Origin: a virus
Virus record (IMG/VR): IMGVR_UViG_3300049255_000554
Coordinates: 1-21,809 of that record
Length of the DNA stretch: 21,809 bases
Strand: one strand, 5' to 3'
Shown here: one piece after another, positions 234 to 16,719 of the stretch
Position numbering within the stretch: position 1 is the first letter of the stretch
How the letters are laid out: the number at the start of each line of letters is the position of its first letter
Program-made: the position numbers and the translations under genes
Notes under the pieces: model-generated
Database searches by the model: none
What the model was told of the DNA's origin: nothing
Seen by the model: the letters and a program-made list of their open reading frames with translations, nothing else

Positions 234-3200
234 TTAATGTTGCGTTTTGAGTGAGCCATTGCGCATCTGATTTGCAAGCCAGCGGTGCATGGCGGAACCC
301 TGCTGCTGCAGAACGCTTGCAAGATCGACATTGCTGTGGGCGTTGATCGAAGGCGAATAGTGAAGATTAACGTCGCCCGACGAACGGGAATTATAGGTAT
401 TGCCGCCCACAGAGGCAGGCGGATCATCCGATCCCGCTGCACGCATATTCTCCGAGGCGCCGTCGGGTAGTTTCATGCTCTGGCTGCCGCCGCTGCCAAG
501 CATGGACTGGCCGGAGCGGATGCCGTGGGCCTGCGCGGCAGGAACGATCATCTCGCCCTGGTGGATTTGCGCCACCATGTCTCGCGGCACATTGGTGCTG
601 CCTATATCGAAGGCAGGCAGAAAGCTAAGTGCTGTACTGAATAACCCGCCACCGCCGGATGTAGCAGATTCAGAAGATACAGCGGCAGTGTTTGCAGACA
701 CTGCTGCCGTGTTGGCATCAGTCTGTACCGTATTGCCGACCACATTGGTGGTTTGCGATGCGGTATTGCCCGTCGTTGCCGCCGTGCCTGCCGTCGTCGC
801 AGTGGTATTAGCGGTAACGACAGCGCCATGGCCGGTAAGCGCCGTAGTGAGCGATGTCAGCGCCGTTGTGTTAGCGGTGAGCGCCGCGCTTTGCGTTGCC
901 TGGCCGCCAGCTCCTGTCGCGCCTGAACCTAATCCCAATGCCGAGCCAATGCCCGGAAACGCGCCGCGCTGTCCGAAAACCGGCGCGGAAAGGCTGGATA
1001 GTTCCTTGGACAGGCTCGTAAATGACTGTTTGATACCGGATTGAATAAAGCTCAGCACCATCGATTGGGCGAGTTTCTTCATTCCCGCCTGCAGGGTCTG
1101 CGTTCCCTGCAGCATGCCTTCGATTGAGGAACTGAATGCATGTTCGATGGGCGCGAACGCATTTTCCCACGCCTGCGTGACCTGGCTCGCCGCCTGTTTA
1201 TTAAGATTCGTGGCGTCGATGGCATACTGCTCGGTGGCCTGCGCCAGTTTTGATTGCGCTTCGGCAATCTGTACCGGCGTGCTGTTGCTATCATTGATGG
1301 CATCGTTGAATTCGGCCTGCTTGGCCACAAACTCCGCTTTCAGCGCATCCATGCGCCGATCGAGATCGGCCTTGGCGCCGCTGCCATCGACATCGCCAAA
1401 CAGAGAGTCGATTATGCCTTCGCCGCCTTTACCTTTCGGGGCAGGCGTTCCGGCAAGATCGATCTTTTTGATCTCCGCCGTGCTTTGCAGCGCGATCTCG
1501 CGGATTTTGCGATCATCCTGAGTTTGCTGCTGCAGCAGGCGCGTTTTTTCATCGAGCGCCGCCTTGTAATTCTTGATGTCGTCGCCGTAAAGGGACTGGC
1601 CTTTTTGCACCCATTGCTCTGCCAGCGCGATCTGCTGCGCGACGTTGGTTTTCGAGGCCTCGATCTTGAGGCGCATGTTTTCGGAATAATTTTGCCACTC
1701 GTCCGATAGCGCCTTGGTAGAGAGTTCATGCTGTTCATTAGCGATCTCTTTACGGATTTGGATTTCCGCTTTCGATCCGGCCTGTACCTGGTCGAGATGC
1801 TCCTGCCAGAATTGCAGCTCGTATTGTTTTTCCTGATCGCCGACCAGTTTCCGCTGCACGAGTTCCTGTTCGAGCTGATCGCGTAGACCCTGCATCTGCC
1901 CGGCGCCGACGCGGTTATTCAGTTCACGCTGCTGGCGTTGCAGCAAGGCGATATTATCCTGAATGATCGGCGCTTCAGCACTGCTTGCCGTCTTTAACGC
2001 CTCTTCGTCGCGCGCCAGCTCCTGCTTGATGCGGCCACGTTCCTCATCTTCAGCCTTCAGCTTTAAATTCTCATCCTGAATTTCACGCAGGATACGCAGC
2101 TGCTCGGATTCTGCTGCTGCCGTTGCGGGCGTTCCGCTTGCTGGTACGGAAAGCGGCTGACTGGAGGCCGGAACCGCGGGCTGCTGACCTGCGACGGGAA
2201 TGTTGACCGGCTGTGCTGATAAGTCCGCTGCTGCCTTTTTGGCTCCGTGCAGGCCGTTTATAAGTGAAGCAATGCCGCCAAGTACACGGCCAACCGCAGC
2301 CATGAATGTATTAGCCCAGCTGCTGTCGCTGATGGCGCGGGTTAATCCCTGCCAGGCGTCCTTGAGATCGTTTGATCCTTTCTGGAATGGCGTAAGGCCG
2401 TCATTGACCAGCGGCCCGAACTTTGCCTGCAGGGCGCTGATAGCAACGCCGAATGCCTGCGCTTTCTGTCCACTCGCATCAAAATCATGGATCGCCTGCG
2501 CCTGTGCGACCGAAAGAAAAGAAAACTGCTGATCCAGCTTTGAGATGCTGTCATAGCCGCCCTTGAGCGCTGAAATCAACTCTTCGGTGGCTTTGGGCAC
2601 ATCGCTGCCGGTTACGCGCGCGTAACCTGCCGCAGCCTGGCCGAGTGCGACATAGGAACCGGTGCCGATATCGCGCTGCCGCGCGAACATTTCGACCATC
2701 TGGGTCGCGGTATCGGTGTTTACGCCCTGAAGCTGGCGTAGATTATCGATATAGGATGCAATCTGGTCTTTGCTGACGCCGAAGCTGGCACCGGTCGCAT
2801 CCATCGCCGCCTTGATTTCGCCGAAGGATTCACCCCATCGCTCGGCTATGCTCACCGCGCTGATAAAAGCCCCTGCAAGTGCGACGACAGCGCCAACGAC
2901 AAGCGTTGTCGGCGTGACGAGTGTCGCCAAAGCTCCGCCGAGGCCGCCTGTGCGCTCAGAAAGCACGATGATGGAACCGGCAGCGCGCTTATAGGAACCG
3001 ATTAAGGTTTCATGGGCGAGAACCGGTTTTTCACGGAAGATTTGTGCGTTATGCTCACCTGCGGCTGAAAGGTTGTCGAGCGGTGGCTTCGCCGCCTGAA
3101 TTTCCGACCGCAGCCGGGCAACGCTTGACTGTGCTGCGACTGCAGCCTCCGCTGATTTCGCCAGCCCCGCCTTGAGGCTATCGGAGGCGGAAGACCCGGC

Positions 3201-3329
3201 CTCGCGCATCTGCGTTGCCATGTTCCGCAATTCAGCGGTAGTGGCGGACAAATTAGCTTTGGCGACGGCGAGCTGGGAAGTGAGGCCAGTGACGTCGGCG
3301 CTAATGCTTACGGCAATATTTGAGGACAT
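234..3329 (-). CDS. Tail tape measure protein (lambda gpH-like)
   Basis: A 1031-residue protein that would set tail length and be threaded through the tail tube. The first 110 residues are a coiled-coil-like Ala/Ser/Glu-rich helix. A hydrophobic Gly/Ala/Val segment follows near residues 127-160, as is common in tape measure proteins. Residues around 400-650 are highly charged and helical. The stretch before the C-terminal third (AFAPIEHAFSSSIEGML onward) resembles the lambda-type tape measure C-terminal region. A Thr/Ala/Asn-rich repetitive tract (TANTTALTSLTTAL and similar) follows, then the motif VPRDMVAQIHQGEMIVPA, which recurs in many tape measure proteins. It lies directly downstream of the tail assembly chaperone genes, the usual order. 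At about 1031 residues it would predict a tail of roughly 150 nm by the usual 1.5 angstrom per residue rule. Confidence 0.93.
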   Translation of the reverse strand: MSSNIAVSISADVTGLTSQLAVAKANLSATTAELRNMATQMREAGSSASDSLKAGLAKSAEAAVAAQSSVARLRSEIQAAKPPLDNLSAAGEHNAQIFREKPVLAHETLIGSYKRAAGSIIVLSERTGGLGGALATLVTPTTLVVGAVVALAGAFISAVSIAERWGESFGEIKAAMDATGASFGVSKDQIASYIDNLRQLQGVNTDTATQMVEMFARQRDIGTGSYVALGQAAAGYARVTGSDVPKATEELISALKGGYDSISKLDQQFSFLSVAQAQAIHDFDASGQKAQAFGVAISALQAKFGPLVNDGLTPFQKGSNDLKDAWQGLTRAISDSSWANTFMAAVGRVLGGIASLINGLHGAKKAAADLSAQPVNIPVAGQQPAVPASSQPLSVPASGTPATAAAESEQLRILREIQDENLKLKAEDEERGRIKQELARDEEALKTASSAEAPIIQDNIALLQRQQRELNNRVGAGQMQGLRDQLEQELVQRKLVGDQEKQYELQFWQEHLDQVQAGSKAEIQIRKEIANEQHELSTKALSDEWQNYSENMRLKIEASKTNVAQQIALAEQWVQKGQSLYGDDIKNYKAALDEKTRLLQQQTQDDRKIREIALQSTAEIKKIDLAGTPAPKGKGGEGIIDSLFGDVDGSGAKADLDRRMDALKAEFVAKQAEFNDAINDSNSTPVQIAEAQSKLAQATEQYAIDATNLNKQAASQVTQAWENAFAPIEHAFSSSIEGMLQGTQTLQAGMKKLAQSMVLSFIQSGIKQSFTSLSKELSSLSAPVFGQRGAFPGIGSALGLGSGATGAGGQATQSAALTANTTALTSLTTALTGHGAVVTANTTATTAGTAATTGNTASQTTNVVGNTVQTDANTAAVSANTAAVSSESATSGGGGLFSTALSFLPAFDIGSTNVPRDMVAQIHQGEMIVPAAQAHGIRSGQSMLGSGGSQSMKLPDGASENMRAAGSDDPPASVGGNTYNSRSSGDVNLHYSPSINAHSNVDLASVLQQQGSAMHRWLANQMRNGSLKTQH

Positions 3330-3332
3330 GGT

Positions 3333-3467
3333 TCAAGCCTTGTAGCCGACGAACCACTTCAGCAGCATATGAGCGGGTGGGTTCCGTCGCCAGTATGCGA
3401 GGAGATCAAGATAGGCAGGAAAAGGCAGCGCATCGATTTCGGGCAGTGTATAGCCGCATGCCGTCAT
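3333..3467 (-). CDS. Tail assembly chaperone, downstream (T-like) part
   Basis: A 44-codon reading frame whose ATG overlaps the stop of the upstream chaperone as TGATG and which ends just before the tape measure ATG. The peptide (MTACGYTLPEIDALPFPAYL and on to LLKWFVGYKA) has the W/Y, Pro and 'YWRRNPP' character of the C-terminal parts of frameshifted tail assembly chaperones. The same frame stays open upstream of this ATG, with no stop for 66 codons back to a GGGGGA run in the upstream gene. It could therefore be made as a -1 frameshift extension (97 + 66 = 163 residues) rather than as a separate peptide. Both readings are given because the sequence alone does not decide between coupled re-initiation and frameshifting. 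Confidence 0.65.
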   Translation of the reverse strand: MTACGYTLPEIDALPFPAYLDLLAYWRRNPPAHMLLKWFVGYKA

Positions 3468-3823
3468 CAGGCTGCCGTAGATTTCGTTCCAGTCGAGTTC
3501 GCTGAGGCTGCCGGCTGAGCCGGCGTCGCTTCCCCCGACTCGGCGGCCCGCATTTCGACGCCCATCAGCTTCGCCACTTTTTCCACGGCGGTTTTCAGCT
3601 CAGGAAATGACACGCCGATCATTGCGTCAATATCGGCGGGCGTAACTTTAGGATCGGCATTGTGCATGGCCAGATAAAGAAGCGTGGTCTGCGCACCAAC
3701 ACCTTCCGGCGTATCGATACCGATGCGAATGAAGGCTGGCCCCGCCTGGCGCATCTGCCCCAGGGTCAGCGGTGCAATCGGAAAATCCCGTCCGCCTAAA
3801 GTGATGGTTTTATCGTCGCTCAT
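3467..3823 (-). CDS. Tail assembly chaperone (gpG-like)
   Basis: A 118-residue protein starting MSDDKTITLGGRDFPIAPLT, a small basic-acidic cytosolic protein without membrane segments. The N-terminal beta-rich 'GGRDFPIAPLTLGQMRQ' pattern is typical of phage tail assembly chaperones that bind the tape measure protein. The last 25 residues are a Pro/Ala/Ser/Thr-rich linker. The start is supported by AGGAGACC seven bases ahead. The gene sits immediately before the tape measure gene, the conserved place for this function. It is unusual in being separated by about 7.2 kb from the major tail protein gene that normally precedes it, so it must have its own promoter, probably in the AT-rich 3824-3960 stretch. 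Exact family not verified. Confidence 0.8.
   Translation of the reverse strand: MSDDKTITLGGRDFPIAPLTLGQMRQAGPAFIRIGIDTPEGVGAQTTLLYLAMHNADPKVTPADIDAMIGVSFPELKTAVEKVAKLMGVEMRAAESGEATPAQPAASANSTGTKSTAA
3530..3536 (-). promoter_or_regulatory. Candidate -1 ribosomal frameshift site
   Basis: On the minus strand the zero-frame codons 96-98 of the tail assembly chaperone read TCG GGG GAA, giving the heptamer G GGG GAA. Slipping back by one gives GGG GGA, so the P-site codon re-pairs perfectly and the A-site codon partly. The -1 frame is then open for 66 codons to the stop at 3333. It resembles in logic the lambda G/GT site (G GGA AAG), but I did not identify a downstream pseudoknot. Confidence 0.5.
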
Positions 3824-4022
3824 AAATGGTCTCCTGTGGTGGTTGAAAGGTAAAATTCAGGCTCGAACCGGCCAAAATTTAGGCACACTTCGAGTCAAGT
3901 TTATAATCGCATAACCCATTGTATTATAATGCGATTTATCTACTTTTCTGGTTGATTAAATTGCCTTTTGGAGCGTTAATGGACTCATAAGCGAATGGCC
4001 AGAACGGAAGAAAGAAAACGCC
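3824..4022. promoter_or_regulatory. AT-rich divergent intergenic region with a dyad
   Basis: About 200 bases separate the minus-strand chaperone gene and the plus-strand small gene at 4023. The centre is AT-rich, with TATAAT readable on both strands around 3923-3930. An inverted repeat AATCGCAT (3905-3912) and ATGCGATT (3929-3936), 16 bases apart, spans that TATAAT. This has the look of a divergent promoter with an operator. No convincing -35 boxes at standard spacing could be matched, so the promoter call is tentative. No coding sequence is seen in the gap. Confidence 0.4.
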
Positions 4023-4238
4023 ATGAAGAGCCAGGAACACGCCACCAAGATTTACGCCGCGCATGTAGCCGGGCTGAACGCCATGTTCGAGCGGCTGCAT
4101 GCACCGGTGGGCGACGATCTTTTTTCCGATCCGGCCAAGGTCACATGGCCGCAGGTAGAAGCGATTACGCAGCTGACCAGAACTGTCAGGGACATCTGCG
4201 ACATGACTTTCCACGAAGGCAAATACTCAACACACTAA
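4023..4238 (+). CDS. Small hypothetical protein
   Basis: A 71-residue open frame on the plus strand, MKSQEHATKIYAAHVAGLNA at the N-terminus, without signal peptide or membrane segment. It is likely helical throughout and is mildly acidic. GGAAGAAAG lies upstream of the ATG as a weak ribosome binding site. The stop is 14 bases before the next plus-strand gene, which has a strong site, so the two probably form one transcript reading against the surrounding structural operon. I do not recognise a family. The reading frame at 3995 that overlaps it in another frame is taken as a shadow because its natural start lies inside the next gene. Confidence 0.6.
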   Translation: MKSQEHATKIYAAHVAGLNAMFERLHAPVGDDLFSDPAKVTWPQVEAITQLTRTVRDICDMTFHEGKYSTH

Positions 4239-4252
4239 CTGAGGAGCATTTT

Positions 4253-4759
4253 ATGAACAGCTTTGCACCGATGCCCACCGAGAATAAAGAATGGGGATTC
4301 TGGGGAACCAGCGTCGGCAATGGGTACGATGCCGAACTGACATGGGATACCGCCAGCCGTTTCCTCGCCAAACACTTCGACCTCACCGCCGAGCAAGCCC
4401 GCAGTGTTTTAGACAACCGCTTCGGACGGCACCTTGCCGACGATTTGAGCTTCATTGAAGGCGGCCCGGCCACGGCGGAGGCGATAACGAATCATCTTGC
4501 AAGGCGCATCCATCACGATGGATGGCGCAAATCCTTTGAAGATGTCATCCGCGCAGAGACCGGCAAAACCTACCCACGCCGCAAGCCTGTCAGCAGGGAG
4601 GATTTGTTCGCAAACATCGCCCGCGAACATCTCAATATCGAAACGCTAGAGGAGCGAAAATCCGACACCCTTGATTTTCACGATGTCGGCGTTATCGGTG
4701 TCCGCCGCGCTTTGAGAGCCGCCTATGAAGCCGGGCGCAACGCGAAAACAAAAAAATAA
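4253..4759 (+). CDS. Hypothetical protein with DUF6900-like C-terminus
   Basis: A 168-residue soluble protein. The start at 4253 is chosen because GAGGAG lies eight bases ahead; an upstream extension in the same frame overlaps the preceding gene and lacks support. Residues 13-63 (EWGFWGTSVGNG, then LDNRFGRHLADD) match a pattern I recall from hypothetical proteins on proteobacterial plasmids and integrative elements. Residues 117-163 (EDLFANIAREHLNIETLEER, then SDTLDFHDV and ALRAAYEAG) match my memory of the DUF6900 consensus. The two parts look like a fusion of two accessory-element protein families. No catalytic residues can be named. It is convergent with crcB, whose stop is 30 bases away. 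Function unknown; family calls are from memory. Confidence 0.7.
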   Translation: MNSFAPMPTENKEWGFWGTSVGNGYDAELTWDTASRFLAKHFDLTAEQARSVLDNRFGRHLADDLSFIEGGPATAEAITNHLARRIHHDGWRKSFEDVIRAETGKTYPRRKPVSREDLFANIAREHLNIETLEERKSDTLDFHDVGVIGVRRALRAAYEAGRNAKTKK

Positions 4760-4789
4760 AGGAGTGAAGCCGTGGCGCTTTAAGCGCAA

Positions 4790-5221
4790 TTAAGCCTCTT
4801 CCTCAATTTCTAACTGAGCAACTTGCGTGGCTCCGCCATTAAAATACGAAGCAACAATATGGCCGAGAGCAACCGCACAAACACATAATATCACGGAAAG
4901 AAGAATATTGGCCATCGGCCTGACTATGGAGCCGCTTCTGAAAAGGTCAAATGTCTGCAAACCGAAAGACGAAAATGTCGTGAAGCCGCCGCATAATCCT
5001 ACCATCACAAATAATCGGATATTTTCCGATACGGGAAACTTTCCGCTGGCAAGCGTCAAGGTGCCAAAAAATCCGATTATAAAACAGCCCAGGACATTGA
5101 TGATTAGCGTACCTAACGGCAACTCTTTACTAATAGGCATTGCCCATAAGGAAATGCCATAACGCGCAAGCGTCCCTATAGCGCCGCCAATCGACAAAAG
5201 TATACATGTGTAGAAATTCAT
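4790..5221 (-). CDS. crcB: Fluoride ion exporter CrcB/Fluc
   Basis: A 143-residue membrane protein of the Fluc fluoride channel family, which works as a dual-topology dimer to let fluoride leave the cytoplasm. Four hydrophobic helices are visible: about residues 5-25, 36-57, 68-92 and 102-127. Family signatures are present: GGAIGTLARY (12-21), NVLGCFIIG (42-50) and the GGFTTFSSF loop (78-86), which carries the pore Phe and Thr/Ser residues. The start at 5221 is fixed by AAGGAGAA seven bases ahead; a longer frame to 5284 merely translates the riboswitch. The C-terminal tail is acidic (LEIEEEA) and the protein is slightly longer than the usual 125-130 residues. The gene is monocistronic inside phage structural genes, which is unusual. 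Regulation is by the fluoride riboswitch upstream. Confidence 0.95.
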   Translation of the reverse strand: MNFYTCILLSIGGAIGTLARYGISLWAMPISKELPLGTLIINVLGCFIIGFFGTLTLASGKFPVSENIRLFVMVGLCGGFTTFSSFGLQTFDLFRSGSIVRPMANILLSVILCVCAVALGHIVASYFNGGATQVAQLEIEEEA

Positions 5222-5249
5222 ACATTCTCCTTCCATAAGGCGACCACCG

Positions 5250-5330
5250 CCGAAACGGTGCAGCCGGTTAATGGTAGGAGTCATCAGCTTGAAATAAGCG
5301 GTTATCGGGGGAACCCCATCCCCATCGGCA
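5250..5330 (-). promoter_or_regulatory. Fluoride riboswitch (crcB RNA motif)
   Basis: Read on the minus strand, the leader of crcB holds the hallmarks of the fluoride aptamer. GGGGATGG begins near 5323, followed by TTCCCCC closing the first helix and AACCGC. A short GCTT/AAGC hairpin follows, and then the highly conserved CTGATGACTCCTAC ends at 5274. Downstream is a CACCG/CGGTG hairpin without a U-tract, then the ribosome binding site AGGAG. The conserved CTCCT of the aptamer is complementary to that AGGAG, so translational control is a reasonable inference. The start of transcription is not identified. Confidence 0.9.
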
Positions 5331-5379
5331 TTAAATTAGCATAAATAGTTTTGCTGGCAACGATAGTGTGAAACAAACT

Positions 5380-7128
5380 CTATTCATCCATCATCCTCTC
5401 AATCTTTTGAATCCTTTCGCCCAGCCAGCGCATCACCGGCACGGCCATGCTGTTGCCAAGTGCTTTGTAGCGGTTGCCATCAGCGGCTGGCTTGCCCCGG
5501 AAAGCCACCAGAGTGTAATCATCCGCAAATCCCTGCAACCGTTCGCACTCCCGCGGCGTCAGGCGGCGCACGGCCATTCCTTGCGCCAGCGCAGGCTTGT
5601 TGTTGCCTCCACCGCCGCCTTCGAGGGAGGGCGCTATATCTTCCTCATAGCCGATGCCGCGTGAAGCCGCTGACTGGCCGGGCTTGAAGCAACCGGCCAC
5701 GAAGGTCTGCTGCTTCATGCCGGGCTCGGCAGATAGCGCACCGGCTAAATCACCGTCGCCATTCAGGAGGCGCACCTCGTCGCGGCAGTTCTGCGCAAAG
5801 GCAACATAAGTGGAAAGATCGCCGCCAGAGGTAACGGTTTTAGCTTGATCGGCTTCGTTGACATAAAGGCCGCCGTTAGGGCGGTCCTTGCGTCTGCCAT
5901 TGGCATCACAGAATGTCACGTTGAATGCCACCGCATGTTGCACGGCGGCCTGCAACGTGAACATGGCGTCACCATCTTCGCCGATGCCGGAGCCTATGCT
6001 GGCATCGTCAGTGGAAACGCCGGTGCGCTTGCCTACCTCCTGCAGCGGGATCGCCACCGCCAGCTGACCACCGCCATTCTGGTGACTGCCATCATGCGGC
6101 ATAGCGCGCAGCGTGGGGGCGATGTCCTGCACCGCGTCGTTACCATAATCTTTGGCGGAGAAAGCAATCAGCGTCTCCGTATCGAAATCCTGGCGCTGCG
6201 TCGACTTAGCATTTAAGCCCGCCGCCACGTCAATGCTGCCGGAGGTATTACCGCCTCCGAACGCCAGCAACGGGACGCCACGGCCGGTAACATCTTCGCT
6301 GGCATCGAAGCCGTCGCCGCGCAGCGTGTGCGCCACCAGCGTATCGGCATCCTCCCTGTGGCTGCAATTGGGCTGCCCGCGCAGGGAATGGGCGACCAGC
6401 CCGCCGCTGGTGGCGAAGGAATGCTCGCCGCTGCGACCGGAACGCGCATCAAGAGTGGGAGCGACTAATCCGCCACCGTCGCCGTCGCTTGGGTCGGGAT
6501 AGCCACGGCTTCCAGTGCCGCCCTTAAGTGTTCCGGCAACGCTTTCCCGCGCTTGGCGGCGCGGCGTAATATCCCGGCGCAGGCTTTCGCGCTCAAACAA
6601 TACCGCCGCGGCAGGTCGCCAGTCTCCAAGATATCCGACAACGAACACACGCCTGCGGCGCTGTGGCACTCCGAAATACTGAGCGTCAAGAATCCGGTAG
6701 GCGAACCCATACCCGCATTCTGCCAACCCTCCGAGGAAGGTGCCAAACGCCCGTCCGTCATCAATTGACAGCACGCCAGGCACATTTTCCCAAACCACCC
6801 ATCGGGCGCGAGATTTTTCAGCCAGGCGTATAAATTCAAGGGCAAGGTTCCCGCGATCGTCAGCAAGTCCTTTTCGCAGCCCTGCGACGCTGAAGGATTG
6901 GCAGGGCGTTCCTCCGACAAGAAGGTCAATTGCTGCATAATCGGTTTCTTTCAGCGCCGTGAAATCACCATGCAGCGGTACATCCGGATAGTGGTGTTTC
7001 AAAACGGCACAGGCAAATGGATCGATTTCCGAGAACCCGGCTGGCTGCCAGCCCAGCGGATGCCAAGCAGCTGTTGCCGCTTCGATGCCGGAACAAATCG
7101 ACAAGTATTTCAACGCATGCTGCGGCAT
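5380..7128 (-). CDS. DNA (cytosine-5-)-methyltransferase with long repetitive insert
   Basis: A 582-residue C5-cytosine methyltransferase that would transfer a methyl group from S-adenosylmethionine to cytosine in DNA. Conserved motifs in order: I at LSICSGIEAA (9-18), IV with the catalytic Cys76 in GGTPCQSFS, VI ENVPG (114-118), VIII QRRRR (156-160), then RRLTPRECERLQGF and KALGNSMAVPVM near the C-terminus (motifs IX and X). Between motifs VIII and IX lies an insert of about 330 residues, far longer than a usual target-recognition region and built of recurring 'hAxTLxG'-like units. The ATG at 7128 is preceded by GGAAG at eight bases; an in-frame TTG at 7179 is less likely. No restriction endonuclease is adjacent, so it is an orphan enzyme, probably protecting phage DNA against host restriction. 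Confidence 0.93.
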   Translation of the reverse strand: MPQHALKYLSICSGIEAATAAWHPLGWQPAGFSEIDPFACAVLKHHYPDVPLHGDFTALKETDYAAIDLLVGGTPCQSFSVAGLRKGLADDRGNLALEFIRLAEKSRARWVVWENVPGVLSIDDGRAFGTFLGGLAECGYGFAYRILDAQYFGVPQRRRRVFVVGYLGDWRPAAAVLFERESLRRDITPRRQARESVAGTLKGGTGSRGYPDPSDGDGGGLVAPTLDARSGRSGEHSFATSGGLVAHSLRGQPNCSHREDADTLVAHTLRGDGFDASEDVTGRGVPLLAFGGGNTSGSIDVAAGLNAKSTQRQDFDTETLIAFSAKDYGNDAVQDIAPTLRAMPHDGSHQNGGGQLAVAIPLQEVGKRTGVSTDDASIGSGIGEDGDAMFTLQAAVQHAVAFNVTFCDANGRRKDRPNGGLYVNEADQAKTVTSGGDLSTYVAFAQNCRDEVRLLNGDGDLAGALSAEPGMKQQTFVAGCFKPGQSAASRGIGYEEDIAPSLEGGGGGNNKPALAQGMAVRRLTPRECERLQGFADDYTLVAFRGKPAADGNRYKALGNSMAVPVMRWLGERIQKIERMMDE

Positions 7129-7184
7129 CCATAGCGCTTCCGTGAAGTCAAGGCGTTTACTTAAGCAAGATACTGACAATCATT

Positions 7185-7212
7185 ATTTTATAAGCCTCAT
7201 TCGACTTGATAA
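7185..7212 (-). promoter_or_regulatory. Possible promoter of the cytosine methyltransferase
   Basis: On the minus strand TTATCA (7212-7207) and TAAAAT (7190-7185) are separated by 16 bases, matching 4/6 and 5/6 of the bacterial consensus, about 55 bases ahead of the methyltransferase start. It lies in the 152-base gap between this gene and the divergent DUF3489 gene. Weak call from sequence match only. Confidence 0.3.
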
Positions 7213-7237
7213 GCGCGCGGATTGAAGCGTTCATGGA

Positions 7238-7255
7238 ATTGTCCGCAGGGACAAT
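7238..7255. promoter_or_regulatory. Perfect dyad, candidate operator or leader hairpin
   Basis: ATTGTCC and GGACAAT form a perfect seven-base inverted repeat around GCAG. It lies 25 bases upstream of the DUF3489 start codon and within the divergent intergenic region. It could be a repressor binding site shared by both genes, or a hairpin in the DUF3489 leader that ends ahead of the ribosome binding site. Nothing in the sequence decides between these. Confidence 0.4.
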
Positions 7256-7280
7256 CATGCAATCAAACCAAGGAGTTATT

Positions 7281-7787
7281 ATGAAGCTTTCCGATAGCCA
7301 GCGCGCCGTTTTGAAGGCGGCGGCAAAAAAACCCAAAACCGATGTGCGCGAATTCATGGCGCATATTAAAAGCCCCCACATCCGTGATAAGGTCGTAAAC
7401 TCAATGCTGGGTAACGGGCTGGTTACCGAAGACCCCGATGCTGAAGGTGTCGTTTACATCATCTCGGAGGCGGGCTTCGCCGCCATTGGCAAGAAGGCTC
7501 CCGCACATGCAGCGGAAGCAGAAGCGCCCGCCAAAAAGCGGGAGCCGAAGCCCAGGCGCGAAGGCGCATCCAAAAAGCAGACCATGATTGATATGCTCTC
7601 ACGCAAGGAAGGTGCGACTATTCAGCAGCTAATGGATACCATCGGCTGGCAGAAGCATTCGGTGCATGGCGCGATGGCAAATTTGAAAAAGGAAATCCAC
7701 GAGAAGAATGGCCAGACCATCGTCGCCAATAAAGAGGAAGGCGAAGAACGCGTTTATAAAATCGCTAAAACAACTCTAGCTGCTTAA
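7281..7787 (+). CDS. DUF3489-domain protein, putative winged-helix regulator
   Basis: A 168-residue soluble basic protein. The start at 7281 is set by AAGGAG seven bases ahead; an in-frame upstream ATG at 7206 lacks such a site. Residues 1-70 look like a winged-helix module (KLSDSQRAVLKAAAKK, then VVNSMLGNGLVTE and a GFAAIG end). Residues 74-98 form a charged Ala/Lys/Glu/Arg linker. Residues 99-163 (KKQTMIDMLSRKEGATIQQL, then IGWQKHSVHGAMANLKK) match the DUF3489 family, which also looks like a winged helix. DNA binding is therefore likely but inferred. It is the only plus-strand gene in this part and faces away from the cytosine methyltransferase with a dyad between them. Its last 23 bases overlap the convergent DUF488-partner gene. 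Such proteins are frequent in alphaproteobacteria and their phages. Confidence 0.85.
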   Translation: MKLSDSQRAVLKAAAKKPKTDVREFMAHIKSPHIRDKVVNSMLGNGLVTEDPDAEGVVYIISEAGFAAIGKKAPAHAAEAEAPAKKREPKPRREGASKKQTMIDMLSRKEGATIQQLMDTIGWQKHSVHGAMANLKKEIHEKNGQTIVANKEEGEERVYKIAKTTLAA

Positions 7788-8529
7788 TTTCATCCAAACG
7801 GATAATGCCATTAATCAGCCATGTATCAGGATAAAGAGAATGGGTACCCATTGCGAAGGCCATGCCTTTCTTTGGGTACTCTTCTCCGAACACTTTTTGC
7901 ATCGATTCCAAGGCCTGCTGCTCACCGTAATTTCTGCGCCAGTTGAAAAATGTAGTGTTAGTTTCCCAATCCTGGCAAGTGCCATCGCGCGAACCGTCTT
8001 CCGTAGTGTATTTATATTTGAACTTGTAGGGGCATGGCTCCAAGGGAAGCAATGATTTATTGTCGAAAAGGTCTTTTTGCTTAAGCACGTCTTGATACGC
8101 CTGACGTTCGCGCACGATATCGTCATCCGACTTTCTTTCGAATGAAAACTTAGGCTGCTGAGGACGCAGCAGCGCAAGGCTTTTTCCTGCTGCAGCAACT
8201 TGTTTCAGGCCTTTTACTTCCAGTTTGGCCAGCAGGCGCTCGCGTTCGCCTTTAGGATATTCACCGATAATTTCGATGGATTGCTGATCGACGCGCACGC
8301 TTTCAGGCCGCGTATCGGTTTTTGGCTTGCGCCATTTGAACCTCACGCGATCCCAGCGCCCAAATTTACTGACATCCTCCAGCTTGCGAAAGCTGACCGG
8401 ATATAACCTTACCCATTCACCTTCGGGAGTAATACCGGCGCAACATACCGTCTCGCCGTACTGCTGACTAATTTGGGGCGACGCCTTAACGATAATGACC
8501 GCTTCGGATTCGCCTTCGGTTTTAAGCAT
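7765..8529 (-). CDS. Conserved partner of DUF488, unknown function
   Basis: A 254-residue soluble protein. The start at 8529 overlaps the DUF488 stop by eight bases, so the two are translationally coupled; a longer frame to 8589 only runs into DUF488. Distinctive conserved-looking blocks are ETVCCAGITPEGEWVRLYPV (26-45), RPESVRVD (74-81), CPYKFKYKYTTEDG (166-179) and CQDWETN (185-191). I recall the 'ETVC.AGI...G.W.RLYP' and 'P..F.Y.....DWE' patterns in other bacterial proteins encoded next to DUF488 genes, but I cannot assign a fold or reaction. No membrane segment or signal peptide. The two Cys-Trp blocks could bind a nucleotide or metal, which is speculation. The gene ends inside the 3' end of the convergent DUF3489 gene. 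Confidence 0.8.
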   Translation of the reverse strand: MLKTEGESEAVIIVKASPQISQQYGETVCCAGITPEGEWVRLYPVSFRKLEDVSKFGRWDRVRFKWRKPKTDTRPESVRVDQQSIEIIGEYPKGERERLLAKLEVKGLKQVAAAGKSLALLRPQQPKFSFERKSDDDIVRERQAYQDVLKQKDLFDNKSLLPLEPCPYKFKYKYTTEDGSRDGTCQDWETNTTFFNWRRNYGEQQALESMQKVFGEEYPKKGMAFAMGTHSLYPDTWLINGIIRLDEIKQLELF

Positions 8530-9025
8530 AAGCCGCTTCGGGATATACGGTAGTAAAGGAATTCTGCCGGGCAATGCCCACACGTACACCGATAGGATTC
8601 ACGCGTTGCCCGGTATCGGCGGCAATGGCGTCGGCTACAATAGTACGATGACACTCATCCGGGCTGCGTTCATAACACAGCAGACAGGATACGCTGGATT
8701 GAGCAAGCTCGATCGCTACTTGTAGATCGGCCTGCGCCTGTTCGGTTTTCATGTGCGCGGAAAATATCTGCAGGAATTTTTTATAATCACCCGCGCGCGC
8801 AGCTTCTCTGCCATTTTTGGGATCGCCTAATCCCTTGAGATGCACATACTCTATGTCATTGGCTTTCAGCAAGGCATGCAGGACGTTTTTAGAGAAGCCT
8901 TTACGGCGTGAAAGTGGATATTCACGTACATCAATAACCCGTTCTATGCCCGCAGTTTTCAATGTGGCAATAAAATCTTCTATCGCTGCACTTTCATATC
9001 CAAGAGTGTAAAGTTTATTTGCCAT
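8522..9025 (-). CDS. DUF488 family protein
   Basis: A 167-residue cytosolic protein. The ATG at 9025 is chosen because the family begins right there with LYTLGYES (5-12); the longer frame to 9103 adds residues unlike the family. Hallmarks are VIDVREYPLSRRKGFSK (30-46), HLKGLGDP (62-69) and CLLCYERSPDECHR (114-127), the Cys-Glu-Cys-His-Arg signature of DUF488. The family is compact and of unknown biochemical activity, with conserved Cys, His and Arg residues suggestive of an enzyme. It is the first gene of a two-gene unit with the 254-residue partner, preceded by an AT-rich leader with AAAGAAA as a weak ribosome binding site. A strong terminator separates it from the upstream lysis genes, so it should have its own promoter. 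Confidence 0.92.
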   Translation of the reverse strand: MANKLYTLGYESAAIEDFIATLKTAGIERVIDVREYPLSRRKGFSKNVLHALLKANDIEYVHLKGLGDPKNGREAARAGDYKKFLQIFSAHMKTEQAQADLQVAIELAQSSVSCLLCYERSPDECHRTIVADAIAADTGQRVNPIGVRVGIARQNSFTTVYPEAAYA

Positions 9026-9122
9026 ATGTATTTCTTTACTTTTTTTTAAGTCACAATGGTAGCAAAAGATTGTTGATAGTTCGTTAAAATCATCCTGCGT
9101 CACTTTAATGCAGCTAATAATA

Positions 9123-9154
9123 AACCCCGCGTAGCCAGTTGACTACGCGGGGTT
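9123..9154. terminator. Rho-independent terminator ending the structural/lysis transcript
   Basis: AACCCCGCGTAG (9123-9134) and CTACGCGGGGTT (9143-9154) are perfect 12-base inverted repeats around an eight-base loop. On the minus strand the hairpin is followed by a T-rich run (TTTATTATTA), so it should stop transcription arriving from the structural and lysis genes. It begins 15 bases after the stop codon of the small gene at 9170. On the plus strand it is followed by TTCTCTTC and would work less well. Confidence 0.9.
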
Positions 9155-9169
9155 CTCTTCGATAAGGGG

Positions 9170-9637
9170 TTACTGGCCGCTGCCGGTCGAGCCGCTGCCG
9201 CTGCTGTTGTTGCCGGTGCCGGTCGACGTGCCGCCAAGGCCATCCGTCAGCACTTTCAGGCCAGCCTGGATGTCGGCGATATTGGCCGCATCGGTGGATT
9301 CGCCTGCAGTGAGCGTCTGAATGGAAGCATCGATAGACGCGATGTGCGCCGGATCGACGGCAGTCTGGGAGGCTTTAATGGTTGCCACCACGGCAGCCAT
9401 GGCATCGGTGAATGCGGACATAGTTTTACTCCATAAGATATTGATGGTTTCTCCGGCTCCGAGATCGAAGCCGGGCGGAGAGAATTCTCCTATTCGCCGA
9501 CCGGCGCGGTCAGCGAATTCCTTCGTGCCCACCGCATCGGCGATGCGGCTAGCAAATAAATCAAGATGCTCGTCATCGACGGGCGAACCGTTTTCCCGGT
9601 TGCAGGATTGCAGAACGCTTTTGAAGAAATGGCGCAT
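9170..9637 (-). CDS. Hypothetical small protein with internal start
   Basis: A 155-codon frame directly after the tRNA and before the terminator. The N-terminal half (MRHFFKSVLQSCNRENGSPV, then a charged helix to about residue 50) looks like a cytosolic globular segment. From Met73 (ATG at 9421) the protein is an Ala/Thr-rich helix, and the last 20 residues are a Gly/Ser/Thr tail. The ATG at 9421 has GGAG eight bases ahead, a better site than the weak AGAGAG ahead of 9637. Either an 83-residue protein is made from 9421, or both forms are made. I recognise no family. Position at the end of the lysis group suggests a role in lysis or in the virion end, without further support. Confidence 0.6.
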   Translation of the reverse strand: MRHFFKSVLQSCNRENGSPVDDEHLDLFASRIADAVGTKEFADRAGRRIGEFSPPGFDLGAGETINILWSKTMSAFTDAMAAVVATIKASQTAVDPAHIASIDASIQTLTAGESTDAANIADIQAGLKVLTDGLGGTSTGTGNNSSGSGSTGSGQ

Positions 9638-9665
9638 GGGTATGCTCTCTTGGTAAAAATGATGA

Positions 9666-9742
9666 TGGAAGCGGGAGCCGGATTCGAACCGAGCGACCTC
9701 GTGGCTAATGAACCACGCGAGCTACCGCTGCTCTATCCCGCT
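9666..9742 (-). tRNA. tRNA-Met(CAT)-like, eight-base anticodon loop
   Basis: Read on the minus strand, a full cloverleaf is visible with an encoded CCA. The acceptor stem is AGCGGGA/TCCCGCT followed by T and CCA. The D arm is GAGC-AGCGGTA-GCTC. The anticodon stem is CGTGG/CCACG around TTCATTAG. The T loop is TTCGAAT in a stem CTCGG/CCGGC whose outer pair is mismatched (C opposite C). With U33 counted from the 5' side the anticodon is CAT. The loop has eight bases instead of seven, and base 37 would be T rather than the usual purine. The D arm and variable region resemble initiator tRNAs, but the end pair of the acceptor stem is A-T, unlike bacterial initiators. Function in decoding is uncertain. 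Confidence 0.8.
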
Positions 9743-9767
9743 GTGAGGCGCGGCGGGCAAAGGAACG

Positions 9768-10130
9768 CTACTTAAAACGATCCAGCTGCGAATCTTCGTC
9801 CGGGTAGTCGGGCTGCGGGATAACGTTTTTAAGTTTCTCGACGTCGATTTGCAGCTTCTGCGCCAGGCCATTAAGCTGCTGATTGACGCTGTCCGGCACT
9901 AATGCGGTGACTATATGCCCGATGGGAACGGCTCCGCTCATCACCATCGTCATGGTAAGCGGCGTCGCGGCCGTCAGGCCTAGAAAGCCTATGGGTGGTA
10001 TGGCGACACCGGCCGCTACCAGTACGGCGCCGATGCCGCATATGAGAATACTTGCAGCGCCCCCAGCCAGGACGCTTGTCGTGGGTTGAAAGTTTTTGAC
10101 CACTGCGGTCGCAAAGCTGAGGGCGCTCAT
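9768..10130 (-). CDS. Holin candidate
   Basis: A 120-residue protein with two hydrophobic segments, about residues 18-42 (LAGGAASILICGIGAVLVAA) and 46-73 (PIGFLGLTAATPLTMTMVM), separated by a short turn, and a charged C-terminal tail (VEKLKNVIPQ to DRFK). The start at 10130 is fixed by AAGGAG six bases ahead; the longer frame to 10208 is not supported. Two membrane helices with a hydrophilic C-terminus, small size and position just after the endolysin gene fit a class II-like holin that would open the inner membrane so that the endolysin, which has no signal peptide, can reach the cell wall. No specific holin family was recognised, so the call is by topology and context. Confidence 0.65.
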   Translation of the reverse strand: MSALSFATAVVKNFQPTTSVLAGGAASILICGIGAVLVAAGVAIPPIGFLGLTAATPLTMTMVMSGAVPIGHIVTALVPDSVNQQLNGLAQKLQIDVEKLKNVIPQPDYPDEDSQLDRFK

Positions 10131-10167
10131 GCAGATCTCCTTGAGTGATGGTTTGAGGAAAATGGGT

Positions 10168-10545
10168 TTAGGAAGCGGAGCCGATGCCGGTGATGGCGCT
10201 CGTGCCACCTTGCGCTTGCGCCGCGTTCATCTGCGCGACGGCGGCTTCGATAGCGACGTTGATCGTGTTCTGCGCCACATTGATGATGTTGGCGGTCGAC
10301 AGATTGGAGGCGATGGAGGCCTTCGCTGCTGCCAACTTCTGAAGCCCGGTGCCGCCAGCCTGTTCGGCGGCGGTTACGGCATCAGTGACGATTTTCAGTC
10401 CTTCGACGCCGAGCTCATCTTCGACAGCGGATTCCGCCGAGCCGAAAAATGTTGCGATGACCTGTCCGGCTTTCTGCACGTCCGGCTTCAGCACCGTCGT
10501 CCACAGATTCTCGAAAAACTGTCCTACGTTTTGAAAAATACCCAT
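10168..10545 (-). CDS. Nested 125-residue helical protein (internal start of endolysin frame)
   Basis: The ATG at 10545 lies in frame inside the endolysin reading frame, with the strong site GGAGAG ahead of it. Translation from here would give MGIFQNVGQFFENLWTTVLK and then an Ala/Val-rich, amphipathic helical chain ending TSAITGIGSAS. No family is recognised; there is no clear membrane segment. It could be a stand-alone gene whose preceding stop codon was lost, giving a fusion, or a true dual product. The linker before Met180 looks like translated leader sequence rather than a domain. Confidence 0.55.
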   Translation of the reverse strand: MGIFQNVGQFFENLWTTVLKPDVQKAGQVIATFFGSAESAVEDELGVEGLKIVTDAVTAAEQAGGTGLQKLAAAKASIASNLSTANIINVAQNTINVAIEAAVAQMNAAQAQGGTSAITGIGSAS

Positions 10546-11082
10546 GTTCTTCTCTCCATCGCGGCGTGTTAAAAGCAACCCACTGCCCGCGCCGCGTAAA
10601 CGGTCAGCCGGTTGTCCTTGAAAATTCGATGTCAGCCTTCCACCGGCCTTGAGATAAACATCCTGCAAATCGCTTAAGCTGTTCTGGCGCTGGCCATAGG
10701 GAGAGCCAGGCAGGCTTGCCCAGATCGTGGAGCATTTAAGAATGGCGCTTTGCAGTTTGCCCGTATCGATATCGGCCAGCGCGCGCCGCTCGGAAAGTTG
10801 CCGTATTGCAATAGCGTCCTGCGAAACAGGCGAGAAATCCGGCACGCCCAGCATTTCTTTATAGGCGTCGTAATATTTAGCGAGCAGCTGATAGCGGCCT
10901 GCCGCGGTAGAGTCTAATTTTGGATTAAAGATGCGCGGATGATCGGCATAGCTGTGAAAAAGCAACGGATGCTGCGGCGTCGATCCCACCAGAACATTGT
11001 ATCCGTTGTCGCTGCCGGGAATGGTGGAAGTGCCTTCCGACCATGCCAGCATGTCGAGGAATGCTTGACGATTGCCGGGCAT
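10168..11082 (-). CDS. Lambda R-like endolysin fused to a helical C-terminal protein
   Basis: A 304-residue frame. Residues 1-153 closely follow phage lambda R, the transglycosylase that cleaves peptidoglycan: QAFLDMLAWSEGT with the catalytic Glu16, then SYADHPRIFNPKLDSTAAGR, the AAGRYQLL block, DFSPVSQDAIA and IWASLPGSPYGQ. No signal peptide is present, so a holin is needed. A linker of about 26 residues follows, then residues 180-304 (MGIFQNVGQFFENLWTTVLK and an Ala-rich helical tail). Met180 (ATG at 10545) has GGAGAG about seven bases ahead, so a separate 125-residue protein may be made from there. The endolysin ATG overlaps the stop of the major tail protein gene as TGATG, so it is translationally coupled to an abundant virion protein, an unusual position for a lysis gene. 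Confidence 0.92.
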   Translation of the reverse strand: MPGNRQAFLDMLAWSEGTSTIPGSDNGYNVLVGSTPQHPLLFHSYADHPRIFNPKLDSTAAGRYQLLAKYYDAYKEMLGVPDFSPVSQDAIAIRQLSERRALADIDTGKLQSAILKCSTIWASLPGSPYGQRQNSLSDLQDVYLKAGGRLTSNFQGQPADRLRGAGSGLLLTRRDGEKNMGIFQNVGQFFENLWTTVLKPDVQKAGQVIATFFGSAESAVEDELGVEGLKIVTDAVTAAEQAGGTGLQKLAAAKASIASNLSTANIINVAQNTINVAIEAAVAQMNAAQAQGGTSAITGIGSAS

Positions 11083-11864
11083 CAGAGGCTGCTCGACCAG
11101 TCGAAGAAGCGGCCCAGACTGTCGGTGAAGGCCGAGAATTCAAAATCGGGAACGGTGAAATCTTCGTTCTTGAAATCCCAGCTCATCTTCGTGGGGATAG
11201 CGGCATAGAGGGTGAGGCACATATTGTTTCCGGCGTAATTATTGGCGAGGTTCATCCGGAAAGTGGGCGAGGAACCCATCAGCTGGTTGACGGCGGTGAT
11301 GCGGTTGCCGCCGCTCGACTGGAAGAAAGCGTAGGAGATGATGACATTGACGCCCGCGGTTTCATCGGCGGCGGAAAACGTATAGGTGCCGCTGGTCATG
11401 TCGCAGCTATATTGTCCTGCGGCCGGAGTCGACGCCGAAGGCACGCGCGTCATCTGAATGCCGGTGCCTGCGTTGAACACACCGCAATCGATACCGGGAT
11501 TGCCTGAAGACATCGATGCGCCGCAAGCGACAGTGAGCTGGTAGGGCGATGCCGGAATGGCCGTGCCGTTCGGGCCGCCTTCATCGACAATCTGGATTTG
11601 CTCGCCGCTGGTAAGGGTCTGGCCCAGGAAGGCATCGTTAAGCTGGCGGGCGTTCAGGTTGGCGATTTTGGCCTTGCCTGTGATCTTCTGCTGGCCGCGC
11701 GCGACTGCGACCGGCGCCTGATACTGGCCGTACAGTTCCTTGGTTTCAAACGACATATCGACGCTGACATCCTGAAGCGTCCCTATGCGTGTGGGCGTCG
11801 GCACGGCGATGTCGGTGCGCACCAGGAACAACGTCCCGGCGCCGAAATTATATTGTTGCAGCAT
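11082..11864 (-). CDS. Major tail protein (tail tube)
   Basis: A 260-residue beta-rich protein. The N-terminus MLQQYNFGAGTLFLVRTD followed by PTPTRIGTLQDVSVDMSFET is typical of major tail tube proteins, which form hexameric rings stacked along the tail. Ala/Gly/Ser/Thr-rich strands fill the middle, and a short Trp/Phe-rich end (DFKNEDFTVPDFEF and FFDWSSSL) closes the protein. The ATG at 11864 has AGAGGAG ahead of it. Position after the gp10-like and tail terminator-like genes fits. The 95-base gap before the gene holds the hairpin element shared with the major capsid gene. Its stop codon overlaps the endolysin start. Confidence 0.85.
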   Translation of the reverse strand: MLQQYNFGAGTLFLVRTDIAVPTPTRIGTLQDVSVDMSFETKELYGQYQAPVAVARGQQKITGKAKIANLNARQLNDAFLGQTLTSGEQIQIVDEGGPNGTAIPASPYQLTVACGASMSSGNPGIDCGVFNAGTGIQMTRVPSASTPAAGQYSCDMTSGTYTFSAADETAGVNVIISYAFFQSSGGNRITAVNQLMGSSPTFRMNLANNYAGNNMCLTLYAAIPTKMSWDFKNEDFTVPDFEFSAFTDSLGRFFDWSSSL

Positions 11865-14289: not shown

Positions 14290-15708
14290 TTACTGGACGA
14301 CGGGCGACCAGCGAACGAACTGCAGCACGACGCAGCCGGAGTCATGGCGAAGCTGGAAGTCATGCTCGGCGATGGCCCGGATAAGCGTCTGGTCGTACTG
14401 GAACGCCGACACCGTGTTGCCATTGGCATCGGTGTAGGTGCCTTCACGCGACACGGCGAGCTCCAGGCTCATCGAGTCAAGAATCATGGCTTCGTTCATT
14501 TCCGCGAGGATGATGAACGAGCAATCATGGTTCGTGCCGGTGGCATCCCAGATATTGGTGGGAATCTGGGTGGTCTTCTTGAAAGGATAGCCGTAGAGCG
14601 TTCCCTTCGACAATTCGTCGCGGAACACATAGAGGCCGAGGCTGTTCAGCAAACCGAACAGGTAGTTGTAGGTTCGCGTATGCATGAACCATACGCGGCG
14701 GCGATCCGGCACGTTGGCGGTATCGAGCCGGTTAATCATGCCGGTCAACTCGGCCACTACCGTTGCTTCGGTATAGGTCTCGTTCGAGGTGATGAAGTTA
14801 CCGCCGTTCTGGCCGAGCAGAGGATTGCCGGGGTTGCCGTTGACCGCCGCCGTTGAATTGGCGCTCACACTCCACACTCCCGCCGTGCCGCCTTGCGACA
14901 CTGCCCAGGCATTGGCAAAGCCGGTGAAGCCCATCGGCGCCGCCTGAGTACCATCGCCCAGGAGGAAGGCAAGGTCTTCACGCAGTGCGATTACTTCAAC
15001 CAGATCATCGCGCACCATGGCGTCGATGGCCGGATCGGCGTAGCGCATCAGGTCGTTCGAGATCGGCACCAGCGCCGTCAATTTCTTGAAGCTGGCGACG
15101 ATCTGCTTGAGCGTCTGCTGCGACGAGGCAATCTGCGAACCTTCAGCGCCATAAGTCGCGGTCGCCGGGCTTGCCTGACCGGGCAGCGTCATCGTGCCGC
15201 GCGGCATCGGAATGACGCGCGGATTGGCGCCGCGCACCACCGCTGCCGGACGCAGCAATTCGATGATTTCGTTCATGTAGTCAGGTGGAACGATGAAGCC
15301 GCCAGCCGGGCCGGTCGATGCGACCAGCGCGCGGGTGACGGGATGGTTTTCGCCGTAGACTTCGGCCGATGCCTGGCGGGCATTGAACAGATTACCGCCG
15401 CCATAAGCCATCATCTTGGCCGCGGCGCCGATGACGAGGCTGCGTTCCTTGACGTACTTATCCGTCTGCACCGTCGCCGGTACCTTGTTTTCGGGCGTTT
15501 CCTGCCCGGCAACCGGCTGCGCGCTGCCAGCGGAAAGCGCCTGCGCGTCTTTTGCACGGGCAATCTGCGCATCAAGGTCAGTGACGGCGCGTTTCTTCGT
15601 CTCGTACTCCGCCTGTTCGGCTTCGGTAAGAGAGGGTTTTTCGGCAAACACCTTGAATTCATCAAAGGCATGCGCACGTTGCTTGGTAAGCTCAGAGATT
15701 TTAGTCAT
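14290..15708 (-). CDS. Major capsid protein (HK97 fold)
   Basis: A 472-residue protein. The start at 15708 has GGAG ten bases ahead; an in-frame upstream codon is not supported. Residues 1-70 are a charged coiled-coil (MTKISELTKQRAHAFDEFKV onward), the delta domain that HK97-like phages use as built-in scaffold. Around residues 100-140 comes the join to the mature shell protein. The HK97 core follows: GGFIVPPDYMNEIIELL, the TLPGQASPATATYGAEG strand, FKKLTALVPISNDLMRYA, REDLAFLLGDGT and the late AVSREGTYTDANGN block ending in a beta strand (CVVLQFVRWSPVV). The delta domain should be removed by the protease encoded just upstream. The 105-base gap ahead holds the shared hairpin element. Confidence 0.95.
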   Translation of the reverse strand: MTKISELTKQRAHAFDEFKVFAEKPSLTEAEQAEYETKKRAVTDLDAQIARAKDAQALSAGSAQPVAGQETPENKVPATVQTDKYVKERSLVIGAAAKMMAYGGGNLFNARQASAEVYGENHPVTRALVASTGPAGGFIVPPDYMNEIIELLRPAAVVRGANPRVIPMPRGTMTLPGQASPATATYGAEGSQIASSQQTLKQIVASFKKLTALVPISNDLMRYADPAIDAMVRDDLVEVIALREDLAFLLGDGTQAAPMGFTGFANAWAVSQGGTAGVWSVSANSTAAVNGNPGNPLLGQNGGNFITSNETYTEATVVAELTGMINRLDTANVPDRRRVWFMHTRTYNYLFGLLNSLGLYVFRDELSKGTLYGYPFKKTTQIPTNIWDATGTNHDCSFIILAEMNEAMILDSMSLELAVSREGTYTDANGNTVSAFQYDQTLIRAIAEHDFQLRHDSGCVVLQFVRWSPVVQ

Positions 15709-15727
15709 AAAATAGGGCTCCATCTAA

Positions 15728-15810
15728 AAGGGACAGTCCGTCGTCACGACGGTCTAGCGCCTTGCCCAAGGGCGGTTGGGGCATCGACTGGCGCGGGCTG
15801 CGCCAGTCGA
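15728..15810 (-). repeat. Multi-hairpin intergenic element, copy A (before major capsid gene)
   Basis: On the plus strand CCGTCGTCACGACGG (15737-15751) forms a six-base-pair hairpin, GCCTTGCCCAAGGGC follows, and a third hairpin has a perfect ten-base stem: CGACTGGCGC (15785-15794) with GCGCCAGTCG (15800-15809) around GGGCT. The first two parts match copy B at 11880 closely, while the third keeps the hairpin but not the sequence. It fills the gap between the protease/scaffold stop and the major capsid ribosome binding site. There is no U-tract. Confidence 0.8.
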
Positions 15811-15813
15811 AAG

Positions 15814-16701: not shown

Positions 16702-16719
16702 AATGTTTTCTCCCAAGAG

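What the first reader, a model, noticed from the sequence alone, without database searches (positions are those of the whole stretch)
4790..5330. Fluoride exporter under a fluoride riboswitch carried inside a phage tail module
CrcB/Fluc with its fluoride aptamer lies between tail and accessory genes of a phage. A toxin-resistance gene with its own ligand-controlled switch would act as a host-benefit cargo, active in a lysogen whether or not lytic genes are on. I know of few descriptions of fluoride resistance as phage cargo. The CTCCT of the aptamer is complementary to the AGGAG of the crcB start, hinting at direct translational control.
Basis: partly seen in the sequence, partly recalled or inferred. 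Interest (0 to 1): 0.75.

Follow-up and report, generated by a model that had tools for sequence, protein, structure and literature searches.

The report
Fluoride-switched exporter carried by soil-type phages
A phage related to prophages of Acetobacteraceae carries, among its tail genes, a complete fluoride-resistance gene with its own fluoride-sensing RNA switch; other unrelated phage groups carry the same pairing, so it looks like a real, repeatedly acquired and apparently undescribed kind of phage cargo.

Summary
Confirmed, and broader than reported. The aptamer at 5332-5268 (-) is a full-length Rfam Fluoride match (63.2 bits, E 1e-15). Behind it lies an intact CrcB/Fluc gene, 5221-4790 (-), 143 aa. 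The unit sits in a 7.3-kb variable cargo region between the major tail protein and the tail chaperone/tape-measure genes; in relatives L093 and L107 those genes are about 40-50 nt apart. It is not an assembly artefact: one contig is 99.99% identical, and another, diverged to 85-90% elsewhere, holds the same leader and crcB at the same place. The anti-Shine-Dalgarno idea is strengthened: CUCCUACCAU pairs with AUGGAAGGAG at 9 of 10 positions. A conserved -35-like element upstream suggests crcB is its own transcription unit. Relatives are prophages of Acetobacteraceae, a family in which a third of sampled genomes hold fluoride riboswitches. Three other phage contig groups in IMG/VR carry riboswitch-crcB beside packaging genes. 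I found no paper describing this. The parts are known; the combination (a toxin exporter on a phage, gated by its own toxin-sensing riboswitch) appears new. Fluoride binding, expression in a lysogen and host benefit are inferred.

The parts
5333..5360 (-). Probable promoter: TTGCCA (5360-5355), 16 nt, TAATTT (5338-5333) with TG before it; lies between the methyltransferase stop and the aptamer
   Evidence: Read from the sequence. TTG[ACG][CG] lies 28-46 nt upstream of the aptamer in 34 of 45 leaders against 1-6 of 45 in control windows. The strict consensus scan did not list it.
5268..5332 (-). Fluoride riboswitch aptamer (RF01734)
   Evidence: 63.2 bits, E 1.2e-15, full length
5227..5280 (-). 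Predicted OFF hairpin (expression platform): 5280-5271 CUCCUACCAU pairs with 5236-5227 AUGGAAGGAG, hiding the ribosome-binding site; its 5' strand is part of the aptamer
   Evidence: -24.6 kcal/mol, z -2.8; same plan in L012, L161, L007, L004
5227..5232 (-). Shine-Dalgarno AAGGAG, 5 nt before the start codon
   Evidence: Sequence
4790..5221 (-). crcB, CrcB/Fluc fluoride exporter, 143 aa
   Evidence: Pfam CRCB 2.2e-29; PDB Fluc match about 1e-11; invariant residues kept
3824..11081 (.). Variable cargo region between major tail protein and tail chaperone that holds crcB with methyltransferase, DUF488, DUF6900, lysin-like and other genes
   Evidence: Gene content varies among about a dozen relatives; L093 and L107 have almost nothing here
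234..3329 (-). Tape measure protein
   Evidence: Pfam TMP_2 2.7e-15, phrog_24
3467..3823 (-). Likely tail chaperone (by position before the tape measure; no family match)
   Evidence: Conserved directly before the tape measure in relatives
11082..11864 (-). Major tail protein
   Evidence: phrog_8234 4e-56; phrog_807 weak; conserved in relatives
5380..7179 (-). C5 cytosine methyltransferase, upstream neighbour of the cassette
   Evidence: Pfam 6.7e-55
14290..19748 (-). Head and packaging module (MCP, protease, portal, TerL)
   Evidence: PHROGs

Best explanation
A self-contained, fluoride-gated resistance cassette carried as cargo by a temperate-type phage lineage of Acetobacteraceae. A promoter just upstream of the aptamer transcribes the leader independently of the late operon (inferred). 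Without fluoride, the aptamer's 3' strand CUCCUACCAU pairs with AUGGAAGGAG and buries the ribosome-binding site (predicted). Fluoride in the cell stabilises the aptamer, which holds CUCC in its own pseudoknot (known for the family), so the ribosome-binding site is freed and CrcB is made and exports fluoride. Needing only host RNA polymerase and fluoride, the unit could protect a lysogen while lytic genes are off (inferred). The phage gained it, in a variable region of the tail operon, from a bacterial riboswitch-crcB unit of the Acetobacteraceae/Rhizobiales type.
For: Riboswitch 63.2 bits; intact CrcB; same unit at the same site in a diverged phage; crcB 7 silent against 1 replacement change, p = 3e-4; crcB dS 0.11 against 0.34-0.93 in flanking genes; near-empty-site relatives; likely promoter; SD-hiding hairpin; nearest cellular crcBs share the riboswitch; relatives integrated in or found in Acetobacteraceae-family genomes; fluoride riboswitch in 103 of 299 genomes of that family; recurrence in other phages.
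Against: No integrase on the twin contig (incomplete). No terminator behind crcB. The arm-swap test over all leaders without a U-run was not significant (p = 0.40). A related host already has its own riboswitch-crcB, so added benefit is uncertain. No functional data.
Confidence: 0.72

Rival explanations
1. The contig is a chimera or a host flank: a bacterial riboswitch-crcB wrongly joined to phage sequence.
For: crcB has 44.7% GC against 56.7% for the window, and every window record is metagenomic.
Against: Phage genes on both sides; a 99.99% twin contig and an independent diverged contig share the junction with the methyltransferase; in the twin both flanks are phage.
Confidence: 0.02
2. The gene serves the phage in the lytic cycle: it keeps fluoride low so that infected cells stay productive, rather than benefiting a lysogen.
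For: It lies in the late tail operon on the same strand and could be transcribed with it; the riboswitch would still gate translation.
Against: A likely own promoter in front of the aptamer makes late transcription unnecessary; related phages are integrated or carry integrase.
Confidence: 0.15
3. A passing hitch-hiker: a recently captured host gene with no selected role in the phage.
For: Seen in only 3 contigs of this lineage; low divergence suggests recent spread.
Against: Promoter gap and leader differ at one base, 7 silent against 1 replacement change; in the L181-L183 group CrcB is 98-99% identical across diverged phages.
Confidence: 0.1
4. The riboswitch acts on transcription (termination) rather than on translation.
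For: Many related leaders have a terminator with a U-run.
Against: No U-run follows the hairpin in this leader; the hairpin covers the Shine-Dalgarno.
Confidence: 0.1

Closest known systems
Chromosomal and plasmid fluoride riboswitch-crcB units (RF01734 with CrcB/Fluc)
   Same: Same aptamer, exporter and gene order; the six nearest cellular relatives have it; plasmid crcB is common and one Listeria plasmid has riboswitch plus two crcB (PMC9484302).
   Different: Here the carrier is a phage, inside its tail operon.
Translational fluoride riboswitches (P. syringae and B. pseudomallei used as translational controls in PMC13273304)
   Same: No terminator; expression platform taken to act on translation.
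   Different: Their exact pairing was not compared here.
Phage morons / lysogenic-conversion genes
   Same: Extra gene with a likely promoter, odd composition, absent from close relatives, among structural genes.
   Different: No terminator found; a ligand-gated RNA controls it; the trait is resistance to an inorganic ion.
Phage-borne riboswitches (glutamine riboswitch in methylophage Melnitz, PMC9004378)
   Same: A riboswitch in a phage genome.
   Different: That one is tied to tmRNA and glutamine; no fluoride case is mentioned there.

Membership tests
Fluoride riboswitch (RF01734) | Covariance-model score over the curated cut-off, full length | tested here: met
   63.2 against 34 bits, positions 1-64
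Fluoride riboswitch (RF01734) | Located upstream of a fluoride-related gene | tested here: met
   46 nt before crcB
Fluoride riboswitch (RF01734) | Binds fluoride and changes expression | not testable with these tools
   Needs probing and reporter fusions
CrcB/Fluc exporter | Pfam CRCB over its cut-off | tested here: met
   102.3 against 32.9 bits
CrcB/Fluc exporter | Conserved residues kept (R20, N42, TTFS at 81-84) | tested here: met
   Invariant in ten CrcBs including this one
CrcB/Fluc exporter | Exports fluoride | not testable with these tools
   Needs complementation or flux assay
Phage moron | Extra gene absent from close relatives at the same site | tested here: met
   Absent in other relatives; L093 and L107 near-empty
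Phage moron | Own promoter | tested here: inconclusive
   Conserved -35-like element in 34 of 45 leaders; not shown by experiment, and not listed by the strict scan
Phage moron | Own terminator | tested here: not met
   None listed after crcB; fold z +0.57. So moron-like, not filed as a full member
Phage moron | Expressed in the lysogen | not testable with these tools
   Needs RNA-seq of a lysogen
Temperate phage of Acetobacteraceae | Integrase or integrated relatives | tested here: inconclusive
   None on the incomplete twin contig; integrase and HTH gene on relative L110's contig; relatives at 82-87% in two genomes of that family, one leading into chromosomal genes

The most novel reading that the evidence does not exclude
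Fluoride resistance is a recurrent class of phage cargo: at least three unrelated phage groups took up riboswitch-crcB units independently, each next to structural or packaging genes, and the cassette moves between phages faster than their backbones diverge. Phages would then spread ion-gated resistance, with the switch keeping the gene silent where fluoride is absent.
Probability: 0.55. Interest if true: 0.65.

Novelty: new variant of a known kind. Interest (0 to 1): 0.52.

Why it matters
It adds resistance to a toxic inorganic ion, gated by its own sensor RNA, to the things phages carry. It gives a simple test: lysogens should gain fluoride tolerance, and pay for it, only when fluoride is present. 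It is also a natural case of a riboswitch making phage cargo conditional, and it suggests that phages as well as plasmids spread fluoride resistance.

Tried and rejected
Assembly artefact: rejected. Planctomycete host, suggested by Zavarzinella having the closest crcB: no phage relative in 199 genomes of its class; no phage genes evident around its crcB by eye. Prophages in the genomes of nine nearby crcB hits: none found. Statistical support for the switch helix across all leaders without a U-run: not significant (p = 0.40). A first set chosen partly by its folding gave p about 0.02-0.05 and is not relied on; a spacing-matched set gave p = 0.05, with two rows re-read by hand. Riboswitch pattern scans suggested only two or three phage contigs in IMG/VR; a CrcB profile scan found more, so the patterns under-counted. 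INPHARED crcB hits as precedents: two checked sit among bacterial housekeeping genes, two have no annotation. L178-L180 (no riboswitch, or cellular-looking neighbours) were not counted as phage cases. L177 (crcB at the contig end, 63%) was left open.

Full report
WHAT IS THERE. On the minus strand, in order: a C5 cytosine methyltransferase (7179-5380), a 47-nt gap, a fluoride aptamer (5332-5268), a 46-nt spacer, and crcB (5221-4790). The aptamer is a full-length RF01734 match at 63.2 bits. The protein is a CrcB/Fluc by Pfam and by match to solved Fluc structures, and keeps residues invariant across ten CrcBs. Two plus-strand genes (orf71 and DUF6900, 4023-4759) follow, then a likely tail chaperone and the tape measure.

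IT IS A REAL PHAGE LOCUS. The window is a linear 21.8-kb IMG/VR record. A 31-kb contig matches it at 99.99% over 15.2 kb. A third contig, L003, is 85-90% identical elsewhere yet has the same leader and crcB at the same place. The head and tail module is found in about a dozen more contigs. Between the major tail protein and the chaperone these phages hold a variable region: 7.3 kb in the window, but about 40-50 nt in L093 and L107, and other genes elsewhere. In this lineage crcB is seen only in the window, its twin and L003.

CASSETTE HISTORY. Between the window and L003, the stretch from the methyltransferase end through the leader to the crcB start differs at one base, and crcB at 8 codons, 7 silent and 1 replacement. 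crcB dS is 0.11, while flanking phage genes have 0.34-0.93. Such a low replacement share is unlikely without constraint (p = 3e-4). I read this as exchange or gain more recent than the split of the backbones, followed by selection; constraint on silent sites is an alternative. L003 ends inside crcB, so this rests on 99 codons. The twin contig shares the L003 letters at crcB codons 9 and 10. crcB has 44.7% GC against 56.7% for the window. The closest cellular CrcBs are 60-71% identical, mainly Acetobacteraceae and Rhizobiales plus the planctomycete Zavarzinella, and the six nearest all have the riboswitch. The tree groups the phage proteins with Zavarzinella, inside a mostly alphaproteobacterial set, with modest support and few columns.

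HOW IT MOST LIKELY WORKS. The segment from CUCC to just past the start codon folds into a hairpin (-24.6 kcal/mol, z -2.8) whose outer arm pairs CUCCUACCAU with AUGGAAGGAG, burying the Shine-Dalgarno. CUCC also belongs to the aptamer core, so aptamer and hairpin should exclude each other (inference from the known pseudoknot of the family). Leaders L004, L007, L012 and L161 show the same plan with different letters, for example CUCCUAUCA/UGAUAGGAG in L012. A blind arm-swap test over all leaders without a U-run was not significant, and a spacing-matched set gave p = 0.05. Many relatives use terminators instead, so platforms differ within the family. A TTG[ACG][CG] element lies 28-46 nt upstream of the aptamer in 34 of 45 leaders against 1-6 of 45 in control windows, which points to a promoter directly in front of the aptamer; the window has TTGCCA-16-TAATTT preceded by TG. 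No terminator was found after crcB. Fluoride binding, expression and export are not shown here.

HOST AND LIFESTYLE. MCP, portal and TerL are 82-87% identical in two genomes from the family of Acidisphaera sp. S103, an Acetobacteraceae member. In one, the contig that bears the phage genes runs on through an HTH/M78 regulator, a recombinase-like reading frame and a Fic gene to a tRNA-Ser and then chromosomal genes. One related contig has an integrase and an HTH gene. None was seen on the window's twin contig, which is incomplete. In that bacterial family 103 of 299 genomes have a fluoride riboswitch, and one of the genomes with the phage relative has its own riboswitch-crcB.

RECURRENCE. Riboswitch and CrcB-profile scans of IMG/VR found three more groups: L120, a temperate phage contig with crcB beside the small terminase; L186, with crcB next to portal and capsid genes and a CrcB 70% identical to that of L120, so these two may share an origin; and L181-L185, five contigs with crcB shortly before terminase and portal genes, one of them on a record with an integrase. 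In the last group CrcB is 98-99% identical, with dS 0.07-0.24 against 0.30-0.89 in the next gene, the same pattern as here. No INPHARED record was verified to hold such a unit.

NOVELTY. Searches of open-access full text found fluoride exporters on plasmids, islands and integrative elements, and phage riboswitches for glutamine, but no phage-borne fluoride riboswitch or crcB. Most subscription papers and preprints were not searched, so absence is not proof. Every part is known; the combination is a new variant of phage cargo. Interest is moderate: surprising enough to test, not a new mechanism.

Noticed in passing
L181-L185, L186, L120/L126/L127: Other phage contigs with riboswitch-crcB beside terminase or portal genes, outside the window's lineage; one group of five shows the same low crcB divergence against a neighbouring gene.
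   Followed up: partly
G494, G582, G652, G620; L173: Some Acetobacteraceae-family genomes hold 9-14 fluoride riboswitches each; in L173 they lie around genes that look, by eye, like membrane hydrogenase or Complex I-type subunits.
   Followed up: partly
L182:7482-9806: The large terminase is 774 aa against 466 aa in L183, with an extra segment that looks intein-like by eye.
   Followed up: no
window 7765-9103; L110:345-1600; L111:3-1100: A DUF488 gene and its partner lie in the cargo region here but beside the small terminase in two relatives, so this pair seems to move as a unit.
   Followed up: no
window 9666-9742 (-): ARAGORN reports a tRNA-like gene of unclear identity with a four-base anticodon (catt).
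   Followed up: no
L004 (Zavarzinella formosa) 9894-10429: A planctomycete carries a riboswitch-crcB of the alphaproteobacterial type, 71% identical to the phage protein; probably horizontal transfer.
   Followed up: partly
CAKLQH020000005.1 (L121), MG543995.1 (L123): Public phage records whose crcB sits among bacterial housekeeping genes; probably bacterial or mixed sequence.
   Followed up: partly
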